Assembly (NCBI RefSeq): GCF_008014675.1
Contig: NZ_VOXD01000011.1
Span: forward strand, 104,146-168,145
Direction of reading: 5' to 3'
Origin: Neolewinella aurantiaca
Lineage (GTDB): Bacteria; Bacteroidota; Bacteroidia; Chitinophagales; Saprospiraceae
Length of the DNA stretch: 64,000 nucleotides
Position 1 is the first letter of the stretch. Every line of letters begins with the position of its first letter. Both the position numbers and the translations under genes were made by a program. Shown in pieces: positions 52,169 through 64,000 of the stretch. Under the pieces are notes generated by a model. That model saw only the letters and a list, made by a program, of their open reading frames with translations, had not been told where the DNA came from and did no database searches.

Positions 52169-53512
52169 ATGGATCGATATTTCAGATTTCTACCAATATT
52201 CTTTGCCCTTTTTCTACTGACCAACGCTGGAACATTAGCCGGACAAACAACAGAGTCCGGTACCGGACTCAAAAATGTTGAGCAGTTGGTTGATTTACTG
52301 TTCTCTGTTGAGGACTTTCAGAACAGGTTTGGAAATGCTCTGGATAACAACGCTGAGTTCGTTCGACAAACTACGGATCCTTACTTCGTCGAGATTCTGA
52401 CCGAAGAGGTGGCTTCATCTGCGCTAACAACGTATGGAGAAATGGTCGGCCGGGCATTGTTGAATTTTAACCAGAGCGAGGTGGACAGCCTGATTGCGGT
52501 AATGCAGTCACCTTATGGTGACGTGATCCGTAAAATGTTGATGACGGACAATTCAGAAATTGAAAGGGACCTGGCTAAATACGTAAACAACCTGGTTCAG
52601 GACGGCATTGCCGGATTGAGGTACAGGGATAGTCTCCTTTTCGAAAAAGAATTTCCCTATGACCTGAGAGAAGTTATGAATGGAGCCTACGTCGATTCGA
52701 TGTTTGACAACGTGAGGGTTGATGTAGAGCGGGACGAAACCGTTCAGACGGAAACTGTAGACGGTGATGTTTACCGGTTCAAGATTAAATGGATAAACAA
52801 CAGTAAGTACTCCCTCGAGGATATGCCCGGGAACCCTGCAAGTCTCGGAGATGAACTCGTCGTTAATATCTATGAAATAGAAGGCGACAAATACAAATAT
52901 ATATGGAAGTCTCTTGATGGGAGCTATGATAAACACGAACTGAAAAGAACCGGCTTTGCATCATACCGGGATGATATTACCGCTTTCAGGTGGAGCCTTT
53001 ACGATCAGTACACAGGGAAGTTCACTTCACCTTTGAGTGCAGAAGAAATTCCAAAATTCAAGAACAGTGGAGGGCATCAGTTCTATGAGCCTGATGACCA
53101 ATTCAGGGTTTCTGCAAAGGTCGAGAAAGAAAGCAATCACGAAAAGACGATCACGCTGCAAACCAGTGATGGCCGGGAAAAACAGTACAGCGTTTACGGC
53201 CGGGCGGCTTTTGAGCTTGAAGGAAAATCGCTTTCTCTTGATCTTTATCAACCGGTTGCGGGCGCAGGCGAGCCTACTGAGCCTTATTTGTTTTTGCCGT
53301 TCAGAGACCTGACCTCTGGGAATGAATCTTACGGGGGTGGACGCTATATTAATCTGGACATCCCGGTTGGGAATGAATTGATTATAGACTTCAACAAAAG
53401 CTACAACCCTTACTGCGCCTATACTGATGGTTACTCTTGCCCTATACCTCCGGATGAAAATTCTTTAGACGTCTTAATCAAGGCGGGAATTAAAGCTCCT
53501 AAGCTGAAATGA
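52169..53512 (+). CDS. Secreted protein of unknown function
   Basis: 447 residues from the ATG at 52169, which gives a Sec signal peptide (MDRYFRFLPIFFALFLLTNA then GTLAGQ). The mature part is mixed helix and strand with many acidic residues. I recognise no domain. It lies between a secreted protease and a nitrilase-type hydrolase, with the next ATG overlapping its TGA, so all three may form one transcription unit. Confidence 0.7.
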   Translation: MDRYFRFLPIFFALFLLTNAGTLAGQTTESGTGLKNVEQLVDLLFSVEDFQNRFGNALDNNAEFVRQTTDPYFVEILTEEVASSALTTYGEMVGRALLNFNQSEVDSLIAVMQSPYGDVIRKMLMTDNSEIERDLAKYVNNLVQDGIAGLRYRDSLLFEKEFPYDLREVMNGAYVDSMFDNVRVDVERDETVQTETVDGDVYRFKIKWINNSKYSLEDMPGNPASLGDELVVNIYEIEGDKYKYIWKSLDGSYDKHELKRTGFASYRDDITAFRWSLYDQYTGKFTSPLSAEEIPKFKNSGGHQFYEPDDQFRVSAKVEKESNHEKTITLQTSDGREKQYSVYGRAAFELEGKSLSLDLYQPVAGAGEPTEPYLFLPFRDLTSGNESYGGGRYINLDIPVGNELIIDFNKSYNPYCAYTDGYSCPIPPDENSLDVLIKAGIKAPKLK

Positions 53513-54447
53513 AAATAGCAATCGCTCAAATCGCGCCCGTCTGGTTAGACCGGGCTGCTACACTGGCAAAGATCACCGCTTACGTTGGGGATGCGGCAAA
53601 GGGAGGAGCCGACCTGGTTGTGTTCGGGGAGACAATTCTGCCCGGGTACCCTTTCTGGCTGGACGGAACGGGCGGAGCCCGTTTTAACGATCCGATGCAG
53701 AAGGAACTGTTCCGTCATTACGCAACTGAGGCAGTTTGCATCGAAGAGGGTATGCTCGATGTACTGTGTAGCCGGTGCAATGAATTAAACATCGCGGTAA
53801 TCGTGGGTATCGTTGAGCGGCCGCTCGACCGGGGCGGCACCTCGGTGTATTGCTCTTTGGTGTATATAGATAAATCGGGTGCCATCAGGAATGTCCACCG
53901 GAAGTTGCAACCCACCTACGAGGAGCGGCTCGTCTGGAGCCCGGGAGACGGACACGGTTTACGAACCTTCCCGATCGAAGGCTTTCGCCTGGGTGGCCTG
54001 AACTGCTGGGAAAACTGGATGCCCCTGCCGCGGGCGGCGCTGTACGGACAGGGAGAGACCCTTCACGTGGCCATCTGGCCCGGCAACGTGCGGAACACCG
54101 AAGTGCTGACCCGATTCCTGGCGCGGGAAGGACGCAGTTACTGCGTCTCCGTTGGCGGGCTGATGCGGCCGGAAGACGTTCCGGAGGGAGTCCCGTTCCG
54201 TGATGAGATCATCGGCAGTATGGGAGCGATGCCGGCAGACGGAGGCTCCTGCCTGGCCAACCCGGATGGCAGCTGGCTCATCGAGCCAGTAGTGGGGAAG
54301 GAAGCTCTCCTCTTCGCCGAGATCGACCCCAACGAAGTGCTGCGCGAACGCCAGAATTTTGACCCCAGCGGACACTATTCGCGTCCGGACGTAACGAAGC
54401 TCACCATTGACCGGACCCGGCAGTCGATCCTCGAAATTAAGGATTAA
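53509..54447 (+). CDS. Nitrilase-type carbon-nitrogen hydrolase
   Basis: 312 residues. The catalytic Glu-Lys-Cys triad is visible: Glu in VVFGETILPGYPFW, Lys in NVHRKLQPTYEERLVW, Cys in LGGLNCWENWMPLPR. The spacing and the LNCWEN context match true nitrilases/cyanide hydratase-like branch 1 more than amidases. It would hydrolyse a nitrile to a carboxylic acid and ammonia; the substrate is unknown. It begins inside the stop codon of the previous gene (ATGA). Confidence 0.9.
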   Translation: MKIAIAQIAPVWLDRAATLAKITAYVGDAAKGGADLVVFGETILPGYPFWLDGTGGARFNDPMQKELFRHYATEAVCIEEGMLDVLCSRCNELNIAVIVGIVERPLDRGGTSVYCSLVYIDKSGAIRNVHRKLQPTYEERLVWSPGDGHGLRTFPIEGFRLGGLNCWENWMPLPRAALYGQGETLHVAIWPGNVRNTEVLTRFLAREGRSYCVSVGGLMRPEDVPEGVPFRDEIIGSMGAMPADGGSCLANPDGSWLIEPVVGKEALLFAEIDPNEVLRERQNFDPSGHYSRPDVTKLTIDRTRQSILEIKD

Positions 54448-54491
54448 AAGGCTTGGGCCCTGACCGGAAGACCGGCCCTTGAAACTCCTCT

Positions 54492-54510
54492 TTGCACCTG
54501 CGATCGCGCC
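54492..54510 (-). repeat. Dispersed 19-mer, copy 18
   Basis: Minus-strand GGCGCGATCGCAGGTGCAA, one mismatch. Intergenic, between the nitrilase and OmpA-family genes. Confidence 0.85.
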
Positions 54511-54630
54511 GTATGAGAATGGTGCTACAAAGTGTAAAAAAGCACAATCTAACAGCGAACCTCCTTTGCATTGCTACGTTTTATGTGCCAAAGCCGGACT
54601 GCCGGTCGTGTAACCAACAACCATTATAAC

Positions 54631-55539
54631 ATGAACAAGCTAATTCTTTTATGCCTTGCCCTGACACTGGGCTTCTCATCTTGCGTGAGCAAGAAACAGT
54701 ACGACGAACTGCAGATGAGCACACAGGCCAAGCTGGACGAAGCACAGAAAAAAATGTCTCAGCACAACCAGGAGATTAACCGTTACGCCGAGCGCCTTGC
54801 CGAATGTGAGCGCCGTGAAGCCGTGGTGATCACCCGCGTAGAAGCCGCTCAGGCTCAGGTGAAGCAGGCCAACGACCAGATTGCTGACCTCCGTAAGCAA
54901 CGCGACCAGCAGGCGACTCAGGTAGGTGACCTTACCGTACTCAGCCAGGGCGCGAACCAGAACATTGGCAACACCCTGAAGCAACTGGAAGGCAAAGACA
55001 AGTACATCCGCTTGCTCCAGAATGCTAAATCAAAAGCTGACTCTATTAACCTTGCACTCGCCGTTAACCTCAAACAGGTACTTCGGGATGGCATCGATGA
55101 TCAAGACGTAGACATCAAGGTCGACAAGACGGTTGTTTACATCAACCTGTCCGACAAAATGCTCTACAAATCCGGTAGCTACCAAATCACCGATCGTGCC
55201 GGAGAAGTGCTGCAGAAAATCGCAACGATTGCCAAGAGCCGCCCTAACCTGGAGCTAATGGTAGAAGGCTACACCGACAACGTGAGCATCAATACCAACT
55301 GCATCAAAGACAACTGGGACCTTTCTGTACTGCGCTCTACTTCGGTAGTGAAAGCACTCCAGAATGATTACGGTATTGACCCTAACCGCCTGATCGCAGC
55401 CGGTCGCGGAGAATACAACGCACTTGCCGACAACGCAACTGCCGAAGGCCGCAGCACCAACCGTCGTACCCGCATTATTCTGCTGCCTAAGCTGAATGAG
55501 TTCTACGACCTCCTTGACCCAACGAAGATCCCGGAATAG
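54631..55539 (+). CDS. OmpA family peptidoglycan-binding lipoprotein
   Basis: 302 residues from the ATG at 54631, giving lipobox FSSC (MNKLILLCLALTLGFSSCVS). Residues ~25-150 are a long charged coiled coil (KLDEAQKKMSQHNQEIN and on). The C-terminal ~120 residues are the OmpA domain: MVEGYTDNVSINT, NWDLSVLRSTSVVKAL, RLIAAGRGEYNAL, NRRTRIILLPKL; it binds diaminopimelate in peptidoglycan. It ties the outer membrane to the wall. A strong terminator follows. Confidence 0.92.
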   Translation: MNKLILLCLALTLGFSSCVSKKQYDELQMSTQAKLDEAQKKMSQHNQEINRYAERLAECERREAVVITRVEAAQAQVKQANDQIADLRKQRDQQATQVGDLTVLSQGANQNIGNTLKQLEGKDKYIRLLQNAKSKADSINLALAVNLKQVLRDGIDDQDVDIKVDKTVVYINLSDKMLYKSGSYQITDRAGEVLQKIATIAKSRPNLELMVEGYTDNVSINTNCIKDNWDLSVLRSTSVVKALQNDYGIDPNRLIAAGRGEYNALADNATAEGRSTNRRTRIILLPKLNEFYDLLDPTKIPE

Positions 55540-55871: not shown

Positions 55872-56801
55872 ATGAGATTAATGCAACACAAGCGCGAAGC
55901 CTACTGGTTCTACCGCTACCTTTCCGTCTTTTACGACAAACTGGTTAATCCCCTTTTCTGGACGGCCAGGATGAGAGAAAAAGCACTTGATATTGGATAT
56001 TGGGACGACGACGAGGAGCTTTCGGTAATCGACGTTGGCTCCGGTACAGGCTTCACGACCGAAGGAATCGTAAAAAGGGTACCTTCCACGAACGTTACTT
56101 GTGTGGACCAGAGCCCGCACCAGATGAACCACGCCAAAGCGAAGCACGAACTTGCTGGTTGTACTTTTCAACTCGGTGATGCAGAAAATCTGCCCTTTGA
56201 CGATGATTCATTCGATCGCTACGTTTCGGCGGGTTCTATCGAATACTGGCCCGATCCACAGCGGGGCCTCAACGAGGCTTACCGCGTTGTCAAGCCGGGC
56301 GGCTGGGCGTTGATGATCGGCCCCCTTGAACCGGTGAATCCCATCAGCCGCTTCGCGGCTAATACCTGGATGCTCTTTCCGCCGGAGGAGGATTACTTCC
56401 GTTACATGGAGCGTGCCGGCTTTGACCGTATCGACTATACCTACGTCAGCCCCCATTGGCAGAAGAACGATCGCTACGGCATCGCTATCGTAGGCCGTAA
56501 ACCGCTGCCGGGCAAGAGCCCCAACCATTACGAAGCAGTAGCCGAAGAGCGGCAGCTCGTTGCGGTAGATAATGAAGGTGTTACCCTTGGCCGCGGTCTT
56601 ATGCTCGCAGGTCGGGTGATCCTTGGCTCTGCGGCGGGCTTTATCTTCATCCCAATGGCACTGATTGCCTCCGTTACGGCTCCGATGCGGGGCATCGACA
56701 AGGAGCCCGAACCACTGAATTCGCATCAGAAAGTTGCATTGGCCACCGTAGGAGTTGTAGCCGCGGTTCTGATCGTCAACCGGCTTACGCGCCGCAGGTA
56801 A
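55872..56801 (+). CDS. MPBQ/MSBQ methyltransferase-like (VTE3-type)
   Basis: 309 residues. The N-terminus HKREAYWFYRYLSVFYDKL, the SAM site VIDVGSGTGFTTEGIVKR, DQSPHQMNHAKAKHE and above all DRYVSAGSIEYWPDPQRG correspond closely, as I remember it, to the plant VTE3 enzyme that methylates 2-methyl-6-phytyl- or solanesyl-benzoquinol in vitamin E and plastoquinone synthesis. A hydrophobic C-terminus (~245-300, two segments) would anchor it in the membrane, as in VTE3. It is followed within 25 bases by a VTE4-like gene. It differs in pattern from UbiE/MenG, the usual Bacteroidota quinone methyltransferase. The substrate is inferred from similarity and context. Confidence 0.85.
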   Translation: MRLMQHKREAYWFYRYLSVFYDKLVNPLFWTARMREKALDIGYWDDDEELSVIDVGSGTGFTTEGIVKRVPSTNVTCVDQSPHQMNHAKAKHELAGCTFQLGDAENLPFDDDSFDRYVSAGSIEYWPDPQRGLNEAYRVVKPGGWALMIGPLEPVNPISRFAANTWMLFPPEEDYFRYMERAGFDRIDYTYVSPHWQKNDRYGIAIVGRKPLPGKSPNHYEAVAEERQLVAVDNEGVTLGRGLMLAGRVILGSAAGFIFIPMALIASVTAPMRGIDKEPEPLNSHQKVALATVGVVAAVLIVNRLTRRR

Positions 56802-56822
56802 GACTACAATCTCCCAGGTAAT

Positions 56823-57668
56823 ATGGCAACGCTCAATACGCGAATCAAAGACTTTTACGATGCTTCTACTCCCTTATGGTTAAACACCTGGGGCGAGCAG
56901 ATGCACCACGGTTTTTATGGTCCTGACGGAAAGCGCAAAGTAGCGCACCAGCAGGCCCAACTGGACATGATCGATGAGTTGCTCAGCTGGGGACAGTCGC
57001 CGGCCAAACCGACGTATTTTCTCGATGCCGGTTGTGGGGTAGGGGGCAGCAGTCGCTATCTTGCCCTGAAGCACCTCGGGGCCAAAGGTCTCGGCGTTAC
57101 CCTTAGCCCGGTGCAGGCCGAAAACGGAATGCGCTATAACCGCGAAGCAGGGGTTGATGACCGGCTGGAGATTCGGGCTCAGGATGTGTACACCCTCGAT
57201 CCGGTGCAGGACGGACCTTTCGACCTGATCTACAGCATGGAGTCGGCCGAGCATATGGAAGACAAGCAGGCACTGCTTGATCTGTTCTACAGCCTGCTGC
57301 GTTCTGGCGGTCAGTTGGTAATGGCTACTTGGTGCCACCGCGAAGAACCGCCGGCGCTTTCGGCGGGAGACGAGAAGGTACTCAGCAAAATTTGTGAACT
57401 TTACCACCTGCCGCCGCTGGTGAGTGTGCTAACCCTCGGGCAAGCCGCCGAGAAAGCCGGTTTCCGGGATGTCGCGACCGATGACTGGTCGGCCGCCGTA
57501 GAGCCCTTCTGGGGGGCAGTCATCAGTTCCGGACTTGATCCACGCAACTGGCCGGGTCTGATCGGAGCGGGAATGAGCACCATCAAAGGCGCGTGGGCGA
57601 TGAAGTACATGAAAGAAGGATTCCGCACGGGAGCAATCCGGTACGGGGTTTTGCGGGGGAGTAAGTAG
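56823..57668 (+). CDS. Gamma-tocopherol methyltransferase-like (VTE4-type)
   Basis: 281 residues. FYDASTPLWLNTWGEQMHHGFY, the SAM site FLDAGCGVGGSSRYLALK, GVTLSPVQAENG, IYSMESAEHMEDK, MATWCHREE, LPPLVSVLTL and the C-terminus TIKGAWAMKYMKEGF with GAIRYGVL follow the gamma-tocopherol C-methyltransferase family motif by motif. In plants and cyanobacteria this enzyme turns gamma- or delta-tocopherol into alpha- or beta-tocopherol. Some relatives methylate other natural products, so a different prenylquinol or alkaloid-like substrate is possible. The stop codon lies inside the left inverted repeat of the inserted element. Confidence 0.83.
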   Translation: MATLNTRIKDFYDASTPLWLNTWGEQMHHGFYGPDGKRKVAHQQAQLDMIDELLSWGQSPAKPTYFLDAGCGVGGSSRYLALKHLGAKGLGVTLSPVQAENGMRYNREAGVDDRLEIRAQDVYTLDPVQDGPFDLIYSMESAEHMEDKQALLDLFYSLLRSGGQLVMATWCHREEPPALSAGDEKVLSKICELYHLPPLVSVLTLGQAAEKAGFRDVATDDWSAAVEPFWGAVISSGLDPRNWPGLIGAGMSTIKGAWAMKYMKEGFRTGAIRYGVLRGSK

Positions 57669-57706
57669 TGGGTAGTTGGTAGACGGTAGTGGGTAGTGGG
57701 TAGTGC
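57665..57706. repeat. Left inverted repeat of the 739-bp element
   Basis: A GTAGTGGG-word sequence. Apart from two mismatches and one extra GGGTAGT unit it is the complement of 58369-58403. It overlaps the TAG of the VTE4-like gene. Confidence 0.75.
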
Positions 57707-57712
57707 CCGCAC

Positions 57713-57796
57713 GCGCAAACCATTGTCGCTCAACTCCCTCCCAGCCTCCCCACATCGCTAAGCTGGGAGGAGCAGTCGCGACAATCTGGTTTGCGC
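57713..57796. repeat. Palindromic element, copy A
   Basis: GCGCAAACCATTGTCGC pairs with 57778-57796 with a 2-base bulge; an inner stem CCTCCCAGC/GCTGGGAGG follows. Its reverse complement closely matches copy B at 60241-60332, including CCAGATTGT, CTCCTCCC and GATGTGGGGAGGCTGG. Confidence 0.7.
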
Positions 57797-57864
57797 CCGG
57801 GAACAGGCTTTGCCGGCAAATCCGGACTTTCCGGACATTATTTTTGGAGTCTGTCTCAATATCT

Positions 57865-58370
57865 GCCATGCATATCGCACCTCCAACGTGCGGCAGCTTT
57901 GTTCGCGGCTTGTTCTAACGCCAGCCACGCATATTGCACCTCCAACGTGCAGTAGCTTTGTTTGTGGCCTGTTCTAACGCCAGCCACGCATATTGCATCT
58001 CCAACGTGCCGCAGCTTTGTTTGCGGCTTGTTCTAACGCCAGCCACGCATATTGCATCTCCAACGTGCCGCAGCTTTGTTTGCGGCTTGTTCTAACGCCA
58101 GCCACGCATATCGCATCTCCAACGTGCGGCAGCTTTGTTTGCGGCTTGTTCTAACGCCAGCCACGCATATTGCATCTTTGAACGCTCGGCAGCTTTGTTT
58201 GCGGCCTGTTCTAACGCCAGCCACGCATATTGCACCTCCAACGTGCGGTAGCTTTGTTTGCGGCCTGTTCTAACGCCAGCCACGCATATTGCATCTTTGA
58301 CGCGCGGCAGCTTTGTTTGCGGCCTGTTCTAACGCCAGCCACGCATATCACACCTCCAACGCGCGGCAGC
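57865..58370. repeat. 59-bp tandem repeat array, about 8.5 units
   Basis: Full units begin (GCCAGCCACG) at 57920, 57979, 58038, 58097, 58156, 58216 and 58275, with partial units at 57865 and 58334. The period is 59 bp, once 60. Each unit contains a short hairpin GCCGCA/TGCGGC around GCTTTGTT. There are no spacers, so it is not CRISPR. The period is not a multiple of three and no frame keeps a constant peptide, so it is non-coding. Confidence 0.9.
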
Positions 58371-58403
58371 ACTACCCACTACATTCTACCAACTACCCAC
58401 TAC
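58369..58403. repeat. Right inverted repeat of the 739-bp element
   Basis: Complement of the left repeat (57665-57706). It ends 12 bases before the start codon of the prenyltransferase gene. Confidence 0.75.
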
Positions 58404-58415
58404 CAACTAATTAAA

Positions 58416-59276
58416 ATGGTTACATTTCTTCGCTTCGGTCGTGCTCATACCCTCATCGGAACCACGCTTTCCCTGCTGGCGCTTTACCTGATGGCTGCCC
58501 GTCATACAGGAGTGGAGGATTGGTGGATGTTCGGAATTAGTCTGTTCTCCTGCCTTGCGGCGAATGTGTACATCACGGGGCTGAACCAGGTGACGGACGT
58601 AGAAATAGACCGGATCAACAAGCCGTATCTTCCGCTGGCAAGTGGAGCGTACTCGATGCGGACAGGGAAAGTGATTGTGGGAGTTTGCCTTTTTCTAGCG
58701 ATAGCTACCAGCCTGGTGTACATGCCGTGGCTGACGGCGACTGTGCTGTCCAGTTTGCTGATCGGAACGGCTTACAGCGTGGAGCCGGTGCGGCTTAAGA
58801 AATACCATTTCTGGGCCGCGTTCTGCATCATTGTGGTGAGGGGGCTGATCGTAAATCTATTGCTGTACCTTCATTTCAGAACAAGTTTGGGGGCGGGGCC
58901 GCAGGTGCAGGGAACGGTTTGGCTGCTGACTACGGTAATCTTCGTTTTTGGAATCATTATTGCCTGGTTTAAGGACCTCCCTGATACCGAGGGAGACGAA
59001 GCACACGGCATCAAGACGCTGACGCTGTTGCAATCCCGCGAGTGGGTGTACAACCGGGGCGGATTGCTTCTGACGGTAACATTGTTTCTGGCTGCAGCCT
59101 ACTCGTTTTGGGTGGGGTGGGTGTACCTGGGCGTCGGGCTCGCGGCCTTGCTGGTCAGCTACCGCTTCGTCGCTTCCCGGCTCGATTTGAAAGATCAGGC
59201 TTCGATCGCCCGCTTTTATCAGGGCACATGGGTAGTATTCTTTGGGGTTTACCTCGTCTTCGCTGTATTCGGGTAA
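58416..59276 (+). CDS. Homogentisate prenyltransferase-like UbiA protein (VTE2/HPT-type)
   Basis: 286 residues from the ATG at 58416; earlier in-frame codons read through the tandem array. About eight hydrophobic segments. FLRFGRAHTLIGTTLSLLA, NVYITGLNQVTDVEIDRINK (first Asp motif NQxxDxxxD, 57-65), YLPLASG, IGTAYSVEPVRLKKY, VRGLIVNL and the second Asp motif KDLPDTEGD (186-194) match the homogentisate phytyl/geranylgeranyl transferase branch of UbiA, and not MenA, UbiA or chlorophyll synthase. It would join homogentisate to a C20 prenyl diphosphate with loss of CO2. A dispersed 19-mer lies in a loop (G-A-G-P-Q-V-Q). Confidence 0.87.
   Translation: MVTFLRFGRAHTLIGTTLSLLALYLMAARHTGVEDWWMFGISLFSCLAANVYITGLNQVTDVEIDRINKPYLPLASGAYSMRTGKVIVGVCLFLAIATSLVYMPWLTATVLSSLLIGTAYSVEPVRLKKYHFWAAFCIIVVRGLIVNLLLYLHFRTSLGAGPQVQGTVWLLTTVIFVFGIIIAWFKDLPDTEGDEAHGIKTLTLLQSREWVYNRGGLLLTVTLFLAAAYSFWVGWVYLGVGLAALLVSYRFVASRLDLKDQASIARFYQGTWVVFFGVYLVFAVFG
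58892..58910 (+). repeat. Dispersed 19-mer, copy 19 (inside the prenyltransferase gene)
   Basis: GGCGGGGCCGCAGGTGCAG, two mismatches. Sense strand. The rightmost copy in the window. Confidence 0.8.
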
Positions 59277-60832: not shown

Positions 60833-61423
60833 GGGCGGGGGGAGAGGGGAAAAGCATTTGTTGATCTGCGGCCCAAAAAGCGGACCATTCTGCCGAAGGT
60901 GTTAAGTGTTGAAGAGGTCCGGCGTTTGTTTGGGGCCATCAGCAATACGAAGCACCGGTGCATTCTGAAAATCATCTACGGAGGAGGGCTGCGGCTGAGT
61001 GAAGTAGTGAATCTTCGCATAGCGGATATTCATTCTGATCGCTTACAAATATTTGTCAACGGCGGCAAGGGTAAGAAAGACCGCTACACGACGCTATCCG
61101 CCAAATTCCTTACGGAGTTGCGGCAGTACTTCCGTGAATACCAGCCACAACACTGGCTGTTTGAGGGCCAGACCGGTGGACAGTACAGCAAGCGCTCCGT
61201 ACAGGCCATCTTGCGGAAAGCCGTCGACAAAAGTGGCGTCAACCCTTTGTGTACTGTACATACTCTGCGCCACAGTTACGCTACGCATTTATTGGAATCT
61301 GGTGTCTCTCTTCGGCACATCCAGGAACTCCTTGGACACGCCAATAGCTCAACTACGGAGGTATACACCCACGTTTCCACGGCGGAGAAGCAAGGTGTAA
61401 TCAGCCCACTGGACCGGATTTGA
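60833..61423 (+). pseudogene. Tyrosine recombinase, N-terminally truncated
   Basis: The frame is open from an in-frame TGA at 60830-60832; the first usable start is GTG at 60899 (174 residues). The linker (FVDLRPKKRTILPKVLS) and the full catalytic domain remain: GLRLSEVVNL (Arg), GGKGKKDRY (Lys), HTLRHSYATHLLESG (His-x-x-Arg), LLGHANSSTTEVYTH (His, nucleophile Tyr). The DNA-binding N-terminal SAM-like domain is gone, replaced by G-rich repeats. The C-terminus GVISPLD recalls integron integrases and a common Bacteroidota recombinase group, but the extra segment specific to IntI is absent. Probably inactive, or active only with a partner. Confidence 0.75.
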
Positions 61424-61440
61424 GTTGCGGGATATTGGCA

Positions 61441-61582
61441 GTAAACACGCAACAGGCTTTTACCTGTTTGGAGTTGGTGGAGTTGCGTGTTTACGGTATA
61501 TTGGCGGGGGGAAAGCGCAACTGGTGTATAGCGGAGATATCTGGTATACGCGCAATACGTGTGCAACTGTGTTCTGCGCAAC
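61441..61582. repeat. Inverted repeat and GCGCAAC-type sites after the recombinase
   Basis: GTAAACACGCAAC (61441-61453) is the exact complement of GTTGCGTGTTTAC (61482-61494), with a smaller hairpin ACAGG/CCTGT inside. GCGCAAC recurs at 61515 and 61576, GCGCAAT at 61550, GTGCAAC at 61561. These may be recombinase binding sites (inference). Confidence 0.5.
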
Positions 61583-61635
61583 GAATAAACATTGATCTAA
61601 TTTCTATCGAGTTTATCATAATGAAGATAAAGTTT

Positions 61636-61643
61636 TAATTTTG
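61636..61643 (+). promoter_or_regulatory. -7 box before the first AT-rich lipoprotein gene
   Basis: TAATTTTG fits TAnnTTTG and ends 4 bases before the ATG, so the transcript would be essentially leaderless. The -33 element is weak (TTT). Confidence 0.45.
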
Positions 61644-61647
61644 CTTG

Positions 61648-62085
61648 ATGAAATATAATTCACTACTAGTTGCCTTCATGTTTATTATATATTCACTAAT
61701 TTCATGTTCAGGTGAATCAGCGAGCAATCAAATAAGTGTCAATCGAATCGAGGTTCCTCTTAAATGTGGAGATACTATACAAGTAAATTCTATTTCATAC
61801 GGATTAAATGGTCAACATAAGAGGATTTTTCTATCAGATGTCAATGACATACATGCTGTTAGTGCTTTAAATGATGAAATTATGTTTTCAGGTTATATTT
61901 CTGTATATATTTTTGACGCTTTACCTAAATCAATTATATATAGCACTTCAGGTCCAAGAACTCCATTGCAACTATTGAAACGTAGTGATTGTATAACTTA
62001 TCAAAAAGTGACGGGGTCAGATTTGTATTGGTTGTCTAAGAATAATAGTCGTGAACTAATTGATATTCTAGACAAATTTAATTAG
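61648..62085 (+). CDS. AT-rich lipoprotein of unknown function
   Basis: 145 residues from the ATG at 61648 (MKYNSLLVAFMFIIYSLISCSG), with lipobox LISC. The codon use is AT-rich, unlike the genes to the left, pointing to acquisition. I recognise no domain. It lies just after the truncated recombinase. Confidence 0.7.
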   Translation: MKYNSLLVAFMFIIYSLISCSGESASNQISVNRIEVPLKCGDTIQVNSISYGLNGQHKRIFLSDVNDIHAVSALNDEIMFSGYISVYIFDALPKSIIYSTSGPRTPLQLLKRSDCITYQKVTGSDLYWLSKNNSRELIDILDKFN

Positions 62086-62222
62086 TTCTTGTATCATGTC
62101 ATTTAATGTTTACTAACGATGGATAAAATTAAATCAAGTTACATAATTAAGATAACTTAATTATAACAGAAATTAGGATTGTAATTCATTCTAACTAATC
62201 TAATCGATCTAATTAAGAATTA

Positions 62223-62807
62223 ATGGGAAAGGTTATACTCATTTACGTAATCTGTATTTTTAGTTTATCGTTATTTTCATCATGCGATGAGAACGCTAAT
62301 AATCATAAGATCAATGATGTCGATGTATTCTCAAATGAGTTTTTAGGTTATGGCTTATTTGAACCTGCTCCTTTGAGAATTACAGCTTATTTCAGCGAGT
62401 GCGGCGAATTTGGAGACCACTTTGAAGAAGTATTAGTTTCCAAGATTGAGGACAATAAATATTTAGTGAATTTAATTCAATATGATTTGTCCTGTGGTCC
62501 ACCACCTCCTCCAATAAATGGGAACGAAGTCGATTACAGAAGAGAGGAGGTTATTAATAATGATTCAATAATAATCACCAATTTCAAATCAAAAGTTATA
62601 CTCAGATATATACATGAGGTAGTATCTGCGAAACTGTTGGAAGAAAATTTTGTGCATTCTGGCCAAGCATTCACTATTGAAAATATGGATTCTACAATGT
62701 TTATAAGCCTTTATGGAAATGACAAAAATAATGAAGTGAGATACGTACAATTTATAAAGGGTATTGGATTTGAACCGATGACAAATGAATATAATTATAT
62801 TCAATGA
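62223..62807 (+). CDS. AT-rich lipoprotein of unknown function
   Basis: 194 residues with a signal peptide and lipobox FSSC (MGKVILIYVICIFSLSLFSSC). AT-rich like its neighbours. A GPPPPP run sits in the middle. Its stop codon is directly followed by ACATAAA, the left end of the attC-like palindrome, which is how integron cassettes end. Function unknown. Confidence 0.72.
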   Translation: MGKVILIYVICIFSLSLFSSCDENANNHKINDVDVFSNEFLGYGLFEPAPLRITAYFSECGEFGDHFEEVLVSKIEDNKYLVNLIQYDLSCGPPPPPINGNEVDYRREEVINNDSIIITNFKSKVILRYIHEVVSAKLLEENFVHSGQAFTIENMDSTMFISLYGNDKNNEVRYVQFIKGIGFEPMTNEYNYIQ

Positions 62808-62953
62808 ACATAAAAAATGCGCAGAACACCGCAGCCCCGTCAACCCGCGCGGATCGCCAGTGGGGCGGAGCCTAAGTTTTGGGGGAGAGACAATCTTGCG
62901 CTATGCCTTACCTTTGGTGGAACGCGCGGGCTGCGGGGCTGCAAACGTTATGT
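62808..62953. repeat. attC-like palindrome
   Basis: A GC-rich imperfect palindrome in AT-rich surroundings. ACATAAA (62808-62814) faces GTTATGT (62947-62953); GCAGCCCCG (62831-62839) pairs with CGGGGCTGC (62934-62942); CCCGCGCG (62844-62851) pairs with CGCGCGGG (62923-62930). The total length, 146 bp, and the end core GTTATGT are like long attC sites, but GTTATGT fits GTTRRRY imperfectly. Confidence 0.6.
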
Positions 62954-63080
62954 GCGATTAAAATAAAAGGTATAGACTCTTAGACTCTTTTTAGGCATTT
63001 TGTCCAGTTATTATTTAGCTGAGAATAGCCCTAAGGGTTTAATTATTAGATGATTATTTAAAAAATGTATCCATATTTCG

Positions 63081-63110
63081 ATTGCTTTAACATTTAAAAT
63101 ATTATATTTG
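63081..63110 (+). promoter_or_regulatory. Promoter of the third AT-rich lipoprotein gene
   Basis: TTG (63082-63084), 18-base spacer and TATATTTG (63103-63110), the last an exact TAnnTTTG. The leader to the ATG at 63255 would be about 140 bases. Between 62954 and 63080 I see nothing else. Confidence 0.55.
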
Positions 63111-63254
63111 CCACTGTGTTTATGACTTACTATCACTAAGTTTTGCCTTTTCTAAGGCGAGCGACTCATTTTTCGTGCGATTCGTAGTCAATTAACTTGT
63201 GGTTGAATCATATACGCTTTACATATTTACTTCACCTTATTTAAACCTATTACT

Positions 63255-63890
63255 ATGAGACTATTCTTTTTATCTGCTAATCTTATCTTAGCGCTTCTTG
63301 TTTCCTCATGTTCTCAAACAAATTTGTGCGAGTCTGGAAACTGTACTCCAACGAAATTCGAAACGCCAACTCTAATCATTGATTTAGATACAGGTGAGTT
63401 CTCATCAGACAACACAAGATTGTTTGGTGAGCGTGAGGAACCTAACCAATTCTTGTCAACTAGCCTTCATCAAGATGATTTACGCCTTATTGCATCATCG
63501 TTAAGTAAGCGAGGCCATTCGAATGCTCATCTCAATGACCTAACAATTTCTGCAATAAGTTACATTCTTTCACCTAACTTCTTCACATCATCAGAAACAG
63601 TTCAGGTTTCGAAAAAGGACGTGATTGGATATGCAATTCATTATTACGATACCGAGAAAAAAATGTATCGTTTGATTTCAAAAAGCGATCAGATAAATGG
63701 ATGTAATATTGAAATTGATGTTTCAAACATCTCCATGTCCCATTTGTGGCAATTAAGTTCATGCCTAAATTCTAATGCGAGTGGAGACATCATTTTCCTA
63801 AGAGAAAAGGTTTCGTCGAAAGATAGGCCAACTCGTTTTAATTCTACTATACCTAGGGTGTTCCGTCTGTTAGCTTCAAGCCGCCGCTGA
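63255..63890 (+). CDS. AT-rich lipoprotein of unknown function
   Basis: 211 residues, lipobox VSSC (MRLFFLSANLILALLVSSCSQ). Moderately AT-rich. Mixed sequence without recognised domain. Its 3' end overlaps by 15 bases with a possible partial gene on the opposite strand. Confidence 0.7.
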   Translation: MRLFFLSANLILALLVSSCSQTNLCESGNCTPTKFETPTLIIDLDTGEFSSDNTRLFGEREEPNQFLSTSLHQDDLRLIASSLSKRGHSNAHLNDLTISAISYILSPNFFTSSETVQVSKKDVIGYAIHYYDTEKKMYRLISKSDQINGCNIEIDVSNISMSHLWQLSSCLNSNASGDIIFLREKVSSKDRPTRFNSTIPRVFRLLASSRR

Positions 63891-64000
63891 TTTTAGCTCC
63901 CGATTCATACGGCGGACCAACCCGTATCGATTTTCGCAGACGTACTGGGTTTCCCAGTCGTGTACCGCCTGATAAGATACACATGATAAGGCTTTTTGGA
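63876..64000 (-). CDS. Possible C-terminal end of a gene entering from the right
   Basis: A minus-strand frame open from the right edge to TGA (63876-63878) encodes about 40 residues, including YQAVHDWETQYVCENRYG and a basic end RRMNRELKSAAA. Composition is protein-like and GC-rich, unlike the AT-rich genes to the left. It is too short to assign; a transposase or recombinase tail is conceivable. Confidence 0.3.
   Translation of the reverse strand, partial: QKALSCVSYQAVHDWETQYVCENRYGLVRRMNRELKSAAA

What the first reader, a model, noticed from the sequence alone, without database searches (positions are those of the whole stretch)
55872..59276. Tocopherol-type (vitamin E) biosynthesis gene cluster in a Bacteroidota
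Three consecutive same-strand genes read as VTE3-like (MPBQ/MSBQ methyltransferase), VTE4-like (gamma-tocopherol methyltransferase) and HPT/VTE2-like (homogentisate prenyltransferase). Seen: DRYVSAGSIEYWPDPQRG in the first; WGEQMHHGFY and ATWCHREE in the second; GLNQVTDVEIDRINKP, KDLPDTEGD and IGTAYSVEPVRLK in the third. Known: this enzyme set is described from plants, algae and cyanobacteria. Inference: the bacterium makes a methylated prenyl-hydroquinone, perhaps tocopherol, tocotrienol or a plastoquinone-like molecule, as a lipid antioxidant or electron carrier. Tocopherol cyclase (VTE1) and HPPD are not in the window.
Basis: partly seen in the sequence, partly recalled or inferred. Interest (0 to 1): 0.93.

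Follow-up and report, generated by a model that had tools for sequence, protein, structure and literature searches.

The report
Vitamin E pathway genes in Bacteroidota
A Neolewinella-like bacterium carries relatives of the plant vitamin E enzymes, three of them side by side and the others elsewhere in its genome, and is predicted to make a vitamin-E-like lipid of a kind usually credited only to photosynthetic life.

Summary
Window 55872-59276 (+) encodes a homologue of plant MPBQ/MSBQ methyltransferase VTE3 (47% identical to a Rhododendron protein), a homologue of plant gamma-tocopherol methyltransferase VTE4 (36-40%) and a homogentisate phytyltransferase (NF009525, 286 bits, cut-off 226). Elsewhere in the genome lie HPPD (438 bits), a geranylgeranyl-reductase-family protein (GGR1) and a tocopherol-cyclase-family protein. 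In relatives GGR1-VTE3-VTE4-HPT form one cluster. Among 398 genomes of the family, VTE3 is in 43 of 55 with HPT and 1 of 343 without, that one ending at a contig edge. VTE4 and GGR1 are in 45 and 36 of the 55, and in 0 of 24 HPT-less genomes tested. The cyclase is in 43 of 45 VTE4 genomes but also in 127 of 343 HPT-less ones; HPPD is common regardless. 28 genomes, this one included, hold all six. The likely product is tocopherol or a close methylated phytyl-hydroquinone. No chemistry is shown, ring closure is the weakest link, and automatic annotation already uses these names. Seven searches of an open-licence library found no paper on the pathway in Bacteroidota.

The parts
55872..56801 (+). 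VTE3-type MPBQ/MSBQ methyltransferase homologue (MT1), 309 aa, class I SAM methyltransferase with a hydrophobic C-terminal segment
   Evidence: 47% to a Rhododendron protein named MPBQ/MSBQ family and 46% to an unnamed Trifolium protein; Methyltransf_11; below the cut-off of each of the 25 NCBIfam models shown of 31; hydrophobic C-terminus
56823..57668 (+). VTE4-type gamma-tocopherol methyltransferase homologue (MT2), 281 aa
   Evidence: 36-40% over about 290 columns to three plant proteins, two of them named tocopherol methyltransferases (Camelina, Arabidopsis hybrid) and one unnamed (Salix)
57865..58370 (.). 59-bp tandem repeat, 8.6 copies, in the spacer between MT2 and HPT (not known to be part of the function)
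58416..59276 (+). Homogentisate phytyltransferase (HPT/VTE2), 286 aa, UbiA family
   Evidence: NF009525 286 bits, cut-off 226; UbiA PF01040 133 bits; motifs NQVTDVEID and DLPDTEGD

Best explanation
These three genes encode homologues of plant VTE3, VTE4 and homogentisate phytyltransferase, and together with HPPD, a geranylgeranyl-reductase-family protein and a tocopherol-cyclase-family protein encoded elsewhere in the genome they likely make tocopherol (vitamin E) in a bacterium inferred to be related to Neolewinella. Mechanism, inferred throughout from family knowledge: HPPD turns 4-hydroxyphenylpyruvate into homogentisate; GGR1 reduces the geranylgeranyl chain to phytyl; HPT joins homogentisate and phytyl diphosphate and decarboxylates to MPBQ; MT1 adds a ring methyl to give DMPBQ; the cyclase-family protein closes the chromanol ring; MT2 adds the last methyl (gamma to alpha). 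Shown here: presence, homology, synteny and co-occurrence of the genes. Not shown: any activity or any lipid. The probable role is a membrane lipid antioxidant.
For: HPT over the curated cut-off; 0 of 14 control genomes pass that cut-off. MT1 and MT2 are full-length relatives of plant VTE3 and VTE4. HPPD 438 bits, cut-off 277. Tocopherol_cycl PF14249 65.8 bits, cut-off 26.6, with motif YxEKDWG in 31 of 31 sequences compared, own included. GGR1 218 bits to TIGR02032 (cut-off 158.8) and a GGR catalytic domain. GGR1-MT1-MT2-HPT cluster in relatives: 14 of 55 HPT genomes have all four within 10 kb; these four were the only gene families shared by more than 5 of 26 neighbourhoods (three contigs are in that set twice). 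Co-occurrence: MT1 43/55 HPT+ and 1/343 HPT-, the one being cut by a contig end just after GGR1-MT1; MT2 45/55 and 0/24; GGR1 36/55 and 0/24; cyclase 43/45 of MT2+. 28 of 398 genomes, own included, carry all six. In nine same-genus genomes and one other, HPT lies more than 3 kb from MT2 or on another contig, yet both are kept.
Against: The cyclase family also occurs in 127 of 343 HPT-less genomes of the family, in gut Bacillota plasmids and, per PMC4963081, in other heterotrophic bacteria with unknown function, so its role here is uncertain. HPPD is no more frequent with HPT (49/55) than without (21/24), and G309 has the operon but no HPPD in a 99% complete genome. 19 of 55 HPT genomes lack GGR1, including five of the window's genus, four of them 88-100% complete, so some would make tocotrienol-type chains or use another reductase. 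12 of 55 lack MT1 and 10 lack MT2. GGR1 misses the BchP/ChlP cut-off (110.8 bits, cut-off 343.3). No lipid data.
Confidence: 0.7

Rival explanations
1. The pathway stops at an open-chain methylated prenyl-hydroquinone (a short plastoquinone-like redox carrier or antioxidant), and the cyclase-family protein does something else.
For: PF14249 is common without HPT: 127 of 343 genomes. No mapped locus holds it together with HPT, MT1 or MT2, within the flanks fetched. Cyclase-like proteins of unknown function are known in heterotrophs.
Against: 43 of 45 MT2+ genomes have the cyclase (the two without are 61% and 83% complete) against 4 of 10 HPT+ MT2- genomes. VTE4-type enzymes act on the closed chromanol ring (established plant biochemistry, recalled).
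Confidence: 0.2
2. HPT uses a long polyprenyl diphosphate, so the product is a plastoquinone-like respiratory quinone.
For: VTE3 methylates both MPBQ and MSBQ in plants (recalled). Plastoquinone-type quinones exist in non-phototrophic Nitrospira (PMC12324825; listing and passages).
Against: The GGR1 gene next to the others in relatives and the VTE4 homologue fit a C20 chain. MT1 is far below the MpqE model: 37 bits, cut-off 335.
Confidence: 0.06
3. The three genes belong to ordinary menaquinone or ubiquinone synthesis (MenA, MenG/UbiE).
For: Same superfamilies (UbiA; class I SAM methyltransferase).
Against: HPT passes the homogentisate phytyltransferase cut-off; MT1 reaches 65 bits (cut-off 158) for MenG/UbiE. 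The genome has three further UbiA-family proteins.
Confidence: 0.02

Closest known systems
Tocopherol pathway of plants and algae (HPPD, GGR, VTE2, VTE3, VTE1, VTE4)
   Same: A family relative of each enzyme is in the genome; MT1 is 46-47% identical to two plant proteins of the VTE3 type and shares a hydrophobic C-terminal segment with them.
   Different: Genes are clustered (operon-like in relatives) in a bacterium; the cyclase relative is distant (65.8 bits to the Pfam model); activity untested.
Cyanobacterial tocopherol pathway (slr1736 HPT, sll0418 MPBQ methyltransferase, recalled)
   Same: HPT falls in the family model NF009525, named homogentisate phytyltransferase.
   Different: Cyanobacteria are reported to use an unrelated MPBQ methyltransferase (recalled, Cheng et al. 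2003), whereas this genome has the plant type. I had no chromosomal cyanobacterial reference; methyltransferases on cyanobacterial plasmids are 27.5-28.9% identical to MT2.
Tocopherol-cyclase-like proteins of heterotrophic bacteria (PMC4963081)
   Same: Same Pfam family and the proposed catalytic motif with N to D (YxEKDWG).
   Different: Here the protein occurs with the rest of the pathway; that paper leaves the bacterial function open.
Haloarchaeal VTE3-like methyltransferases
   Same: 44-48% identical to MT1 over 180-201 aligned residues in Halomontanus and Natrinema; one lies beside a prenyltransferase gene.
   Different: 209-219 aa, no C-terminal hydrophobic segment.

Membership tests
Homogentisate phytyltransferase (NF009525) | Score over the curated cut-off | tested here: met
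   286 bits, cut-off 226; next best ChlG 61, cut-off 313
Homogentisate phytyltransferase (NF009525) | Two Asp-rich UbiA motifs | tested here: met
   NQVTDVEID and DLPDTEGD in the sequence; second motif in 66 of 66 HPT rows, the window's own twice, but also in one paralogue
Homogentisate phytyltransferase (NF009525) | Prenylates homogentisate | not testable with these tools
   needs enzyme assay
VTE3 (MPBQ/MSBQ methyltransferase, plant type) | Full-length homology including C-terminal hydrophobic segment | tested here: met
   47% over 270 columns to Rhododendron; C-terminal hydrophobic window 2.13 at residue 250
VTE3 (MPBQ/MSBQ methyltransferase, plant type) | Groups with plant VTE3 rather than with other methyltransferases | tested here: inconclusive
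   80/87 and 97/94 support against three haloarchaeal rows, but the AU test does not reject other placements (p 0.12); few outgroups, bootstrap not settled
VTE4 (gamma-tocopherol methyltransferase) | Full-length homology to plant enzymes | tested here: met
   36-40%, E about 1e-66 in a five-sequence set
VTE4 (gamma-tocopherol methyltransferase) | Methylates the chromanol ring | not testable with these tools
   needs assay
Tocopherol cyclase VTE1 (PF14249) | Family score over cut-off | tested here: met
   65.8 bits, cut-off 26.6
Tocopherol cyclase VTE1 (PF14249) | Motif YxEKNWG of photosynthetic organisms | tested here: inconclusive
   YTEKDWG: one substitution, N to D
Tocopherol cyclase VTE1 (PF14249) | Occurs only with the rest of the pathway | tested here: not met
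   127 of 343 HPT-less genomes have it
Geranylgeranyl reductase ChlP/BchP (TIGR02023) | Score over the curated cut-off | tested here: not met
   110.8 bits, cut-off 343.3; only the broader TIGR02032 subfamily is passed, 218 with cut-off 158.8
UbiE/MenG | Score over the curated cut-off (TIGR01934) | tested here: not met
   65.4 bits, cut-off 158.35
HPPD (TIGR01263) | Score over the curated cut-off | tested here: met
   438 bits, cut-off 277, own genome

The most novel reading that the evidence does not exclude
Non-photosynthetic Bacteroidota make vitamin E de novo with a plant-like enzyme set carried as an operon, and this lineage, rather than archaea or cyanobacteria, may hold the closest living relatives of the bacterial source of plant VTE3; other Bacteroidota run a second, partly unrelated version that would recycle phytol.
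Probability: 0.4. Interest if true: 0.92.

Novelty: new variant of a known kind. Interest (0 to 1): 0.78.

Why it matters
A review abstract that came up in my search states that tocochromanols are solely synthesised by photosynthetic organisms (PMC5745509, start of abstract in the listing). A heterotrophic bacterium (lifestyle recalled for Neolewinella, not tested) with the full set would break that rule, suggest a membrane antioxidant role apart from photosynthesis, provide compact genes for vitamin E production, and bear on the open question of where the plant-type VTE3 came from.

Tried and rejected
Rejected: ordinary MenA/UbiE quinone genes; methyl-plastoquinone MpqE type (37 bits, cut-off 335); HPPD as specific evidence (no association). 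The 2016 cyclase survey weakened the cyclase as proof, so I counted it with and without HPT and report both.

Led nowhere: solved structures gave no relative of the cyclase. Its AlphaFold model (pLDDT 89) resembles AttH-like NE1406, Fsa2/Phm7 and a phosphosteroid lyase at TM about 0.5, which does not decide function. The promoter scan found one site, on the other strand. My regular expression for the first Asp motif was too strict and returned none; I do not use it. The VTE3 trees have too few outgroups to settle origin; a paper search on VTE3, archaea and gene transfer gave three papers, of which I looked at passages of one without finding an answer. I had no chromosomal cyanobacterial or curated VTE references. 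In the motif check, 28 of the 30 fetched cyclase loci were used; L107 and L115, which did not show, were left out. Fisher values ignore kinship of genomes. As a partial check, read by eye, in eight genera (g168, g175, g183, g192, g194, g209, g229, g253) one member has HPT and MT1 and another neither; in four of these genera the negative genome is only 81-89% complete. The 2 x 2 counts for the cyclase were also read by eye. Named loci and G genomes overlap, so their counts must not be added.
Full report
What is there. The window lies at C8:104146-168145 of a 6.0 Mb, 99.3% complete genome. Its nearest relatives with a name are Lewinella and Neolewinella (HPT 90% identical to an uncultured Lewinella, 84% to N. 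persica), so the organism is inferred to be of that group; the genome itself is unnamed. Three same-strand genes follow each other: MT1 55872-56801, MT2 56823-57668 and HPT 58416-59276. The spacer before HPT holds a 59-bp repeat, 8.6 copies.

What the genes are. HPT scores 286 bits against NF009525, homogentisate phytyltransferase (cut-off 226); chlorophyll synthase is next at 61 with cut-off 313. MT1 passes none of the 25 NCBIfam cut-offs shown of 31 models matched (best MenG/UbiE 65.4, cut-off 158.35). A search of 5.8 billion proteins with an alignment that included a recalled Arabidopsis sequence listed, among its best 120 of 3309, two plant proteins, one named MPBQ/MSBQ family (Rhododendron), one unnamed (Trifolium); they match MT1 itself at 46-47%. 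MT2 in the same way matches plant proteins, among them ones named gamma-tocopherol methyltransferase, at 36-40% over about 290 columns. Automatic annotation already labels Saprospiraceae or Neolewinella orthologues MPBQ/MSBQ methyltransferase, tocopherol O-methyltransferase and tocopherol cyclase family protein, so the names are not new.

The rest of the pathway. The genome has HPPD at C29 (438 bits), a cyclase-family protein at C43 (65.8 bits for the whole protein), and geranylgeranyl-reductase-family proteins of which two pass TIGR02032. One of these, GGR1 at C1:92749-93978, is 61-74% identical to a reductase that in relatives sits directly before MT1-MT2-HPT. I infer that in the window's lineage the reductase gene has moved away from the cluster.

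Counting. In a sample of 295 genomes of the class, 11 have HPT over the cut-off; in 398 genomes of the family, 55 do, including the window's genome and the 20 same-genus genomes listed. MT1 (E <= 1e-40) is in 43 of the 55 and 1 of 343 others; in that one, G414, the contig ends 38 bases after MT1, with GGR1 before it. MT2 is in 45 of 55, GGR1 in 36 of 55; both are in 0 of 24 HPT-less genomes that I chose for completeness. HPPD is in 49 of 55 and 21 of 24, no difference. The cyclase family is in 47 of 55 and 127 of 343; with MT2 it is in 43 of 45, without MT2 among HPT genomes in 4 of 10. MT1 and MT2 lie within 3 kb in 42 of 43 genomes that have both; MT2 and HPT in 35 of 45. 28 of the 55, hence of 398, hold HPT, MT1, MT2, GGR1, HPPD and cyclase. 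In the phylum at large MT1 (E <= 1e-30) is in 2 of 257 sampled genomes, the window's own and one of its genus. The tests ignore relatedness.

Two kinds of HPT. A tree of 66 HPT rows with three paralogues separates the window's type (41 rows with one Actinomycetota sequence, 100/99) from other Bacteroidota HPTs. Many of the others neighbour a different protein, MTalt, predicted to have a methyltransferase fold (pLDDT 94), and a phytol-kinase-like protein, fused to a DUF92 domain in L012, L134, L135 and L138; the kinase reading rests on recalled resemblance to VTE5/VTE6 and is not tested. Such strains would take phytol from chlorophyll debris (inference).

Mechanism and doubts. The proposed order is HPPD, GGR1, HPT, MT1, cyclase, MT2. 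Every catalytic step is inferred from family. The weak link is ring closure: cyclase-family proteins occur widely without HPT, and a 2016 study, of which I read passages including part of the abstract, notes them in heterotrophs with unknown function. The argument for closure is that MT2 resembles an enzyme that acts on chromanols (recalled) and that 43 of 45 MT2 genomes keep the cyclase. Genomes with the triad but without GGR1 (one search lists eight that also have cyclase and HPPD) may make tocotrienols.

Evolution. MT1 and the plant proteins share a hydrophobic C-terminal segment that three haloarchaeal relatives lack. Plants group with Bacteroidota at 80/87 and 97/94 (bootstrap not settled), but an AU test does not reject the alternatives (p 0.12). 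Direction of transfer is open.

Literature. Searches found no paper describing tocopherol synthesis in Bacteroidota, judged from listings and the passages below; the library holds only open-licence papers. Seen: listings for all, passages of PMC4963081, PMC11344244, PMC12324825 and PMC6832408, and the start of the abstract of PMC5745509.

Noticed in passing
L005-L010, L013-L015, L134, L135, L137, L138, L140, L142 (and L061, L062, L065 without an MTalt match): Other Bacteroidota have HPT beside an unrelated predicted methyltransferase (MTalt, no Pfam match in the one member scanned, L009) and in many cases a phytol-kinase-like membrane protein, fused to DUF92 in L012, L134, L135 and L138: a possible second tocopherol-type gene set fed by phytol recycling.
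   Followed up: partly
window 57865-58370: 59-bp tandem repeat, 8.6 copies at 90% match, between MT2 and HPT; its core was found only in the window and the same stretch of its genome, not in the fetched loci of other genomes.
   Followed up: partly
window 60899-64000: Tyrosine recombinase followed by a stretch of 34-42% GC against 46-59% in the 13 kb before it: a likely mobile or gene-capture region.
   Followed up: no
L171 1438-3130: Haloarchaeal plasmid (Halomontanus rarus) with a VTE3-like methyltransferase divergently next to a prenyltransferase gene.
   Followed up: partly
L039 1000-3985: In the window's genome the cyclase-family gene lies two genes after a protein that reads as an iron/manganese superoxide dismutase (recognised by eye), which may hint at an antioxidant setting.
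   Followed up: no
L064 8001-8861: An Actinomycetota MAG (Nitriliruptorales) carries an HPT that groups with the window's type, on a long branch, without an MT1 or MT2 match in its 13 kb.
   Followed up: partly
window 53509-55539: A nitrilase-family gene and an OmpA-family gene keep their place just before MT1 in L050-L053 and L056; L054 keeps the OmpA gene only.
   Followed up: no
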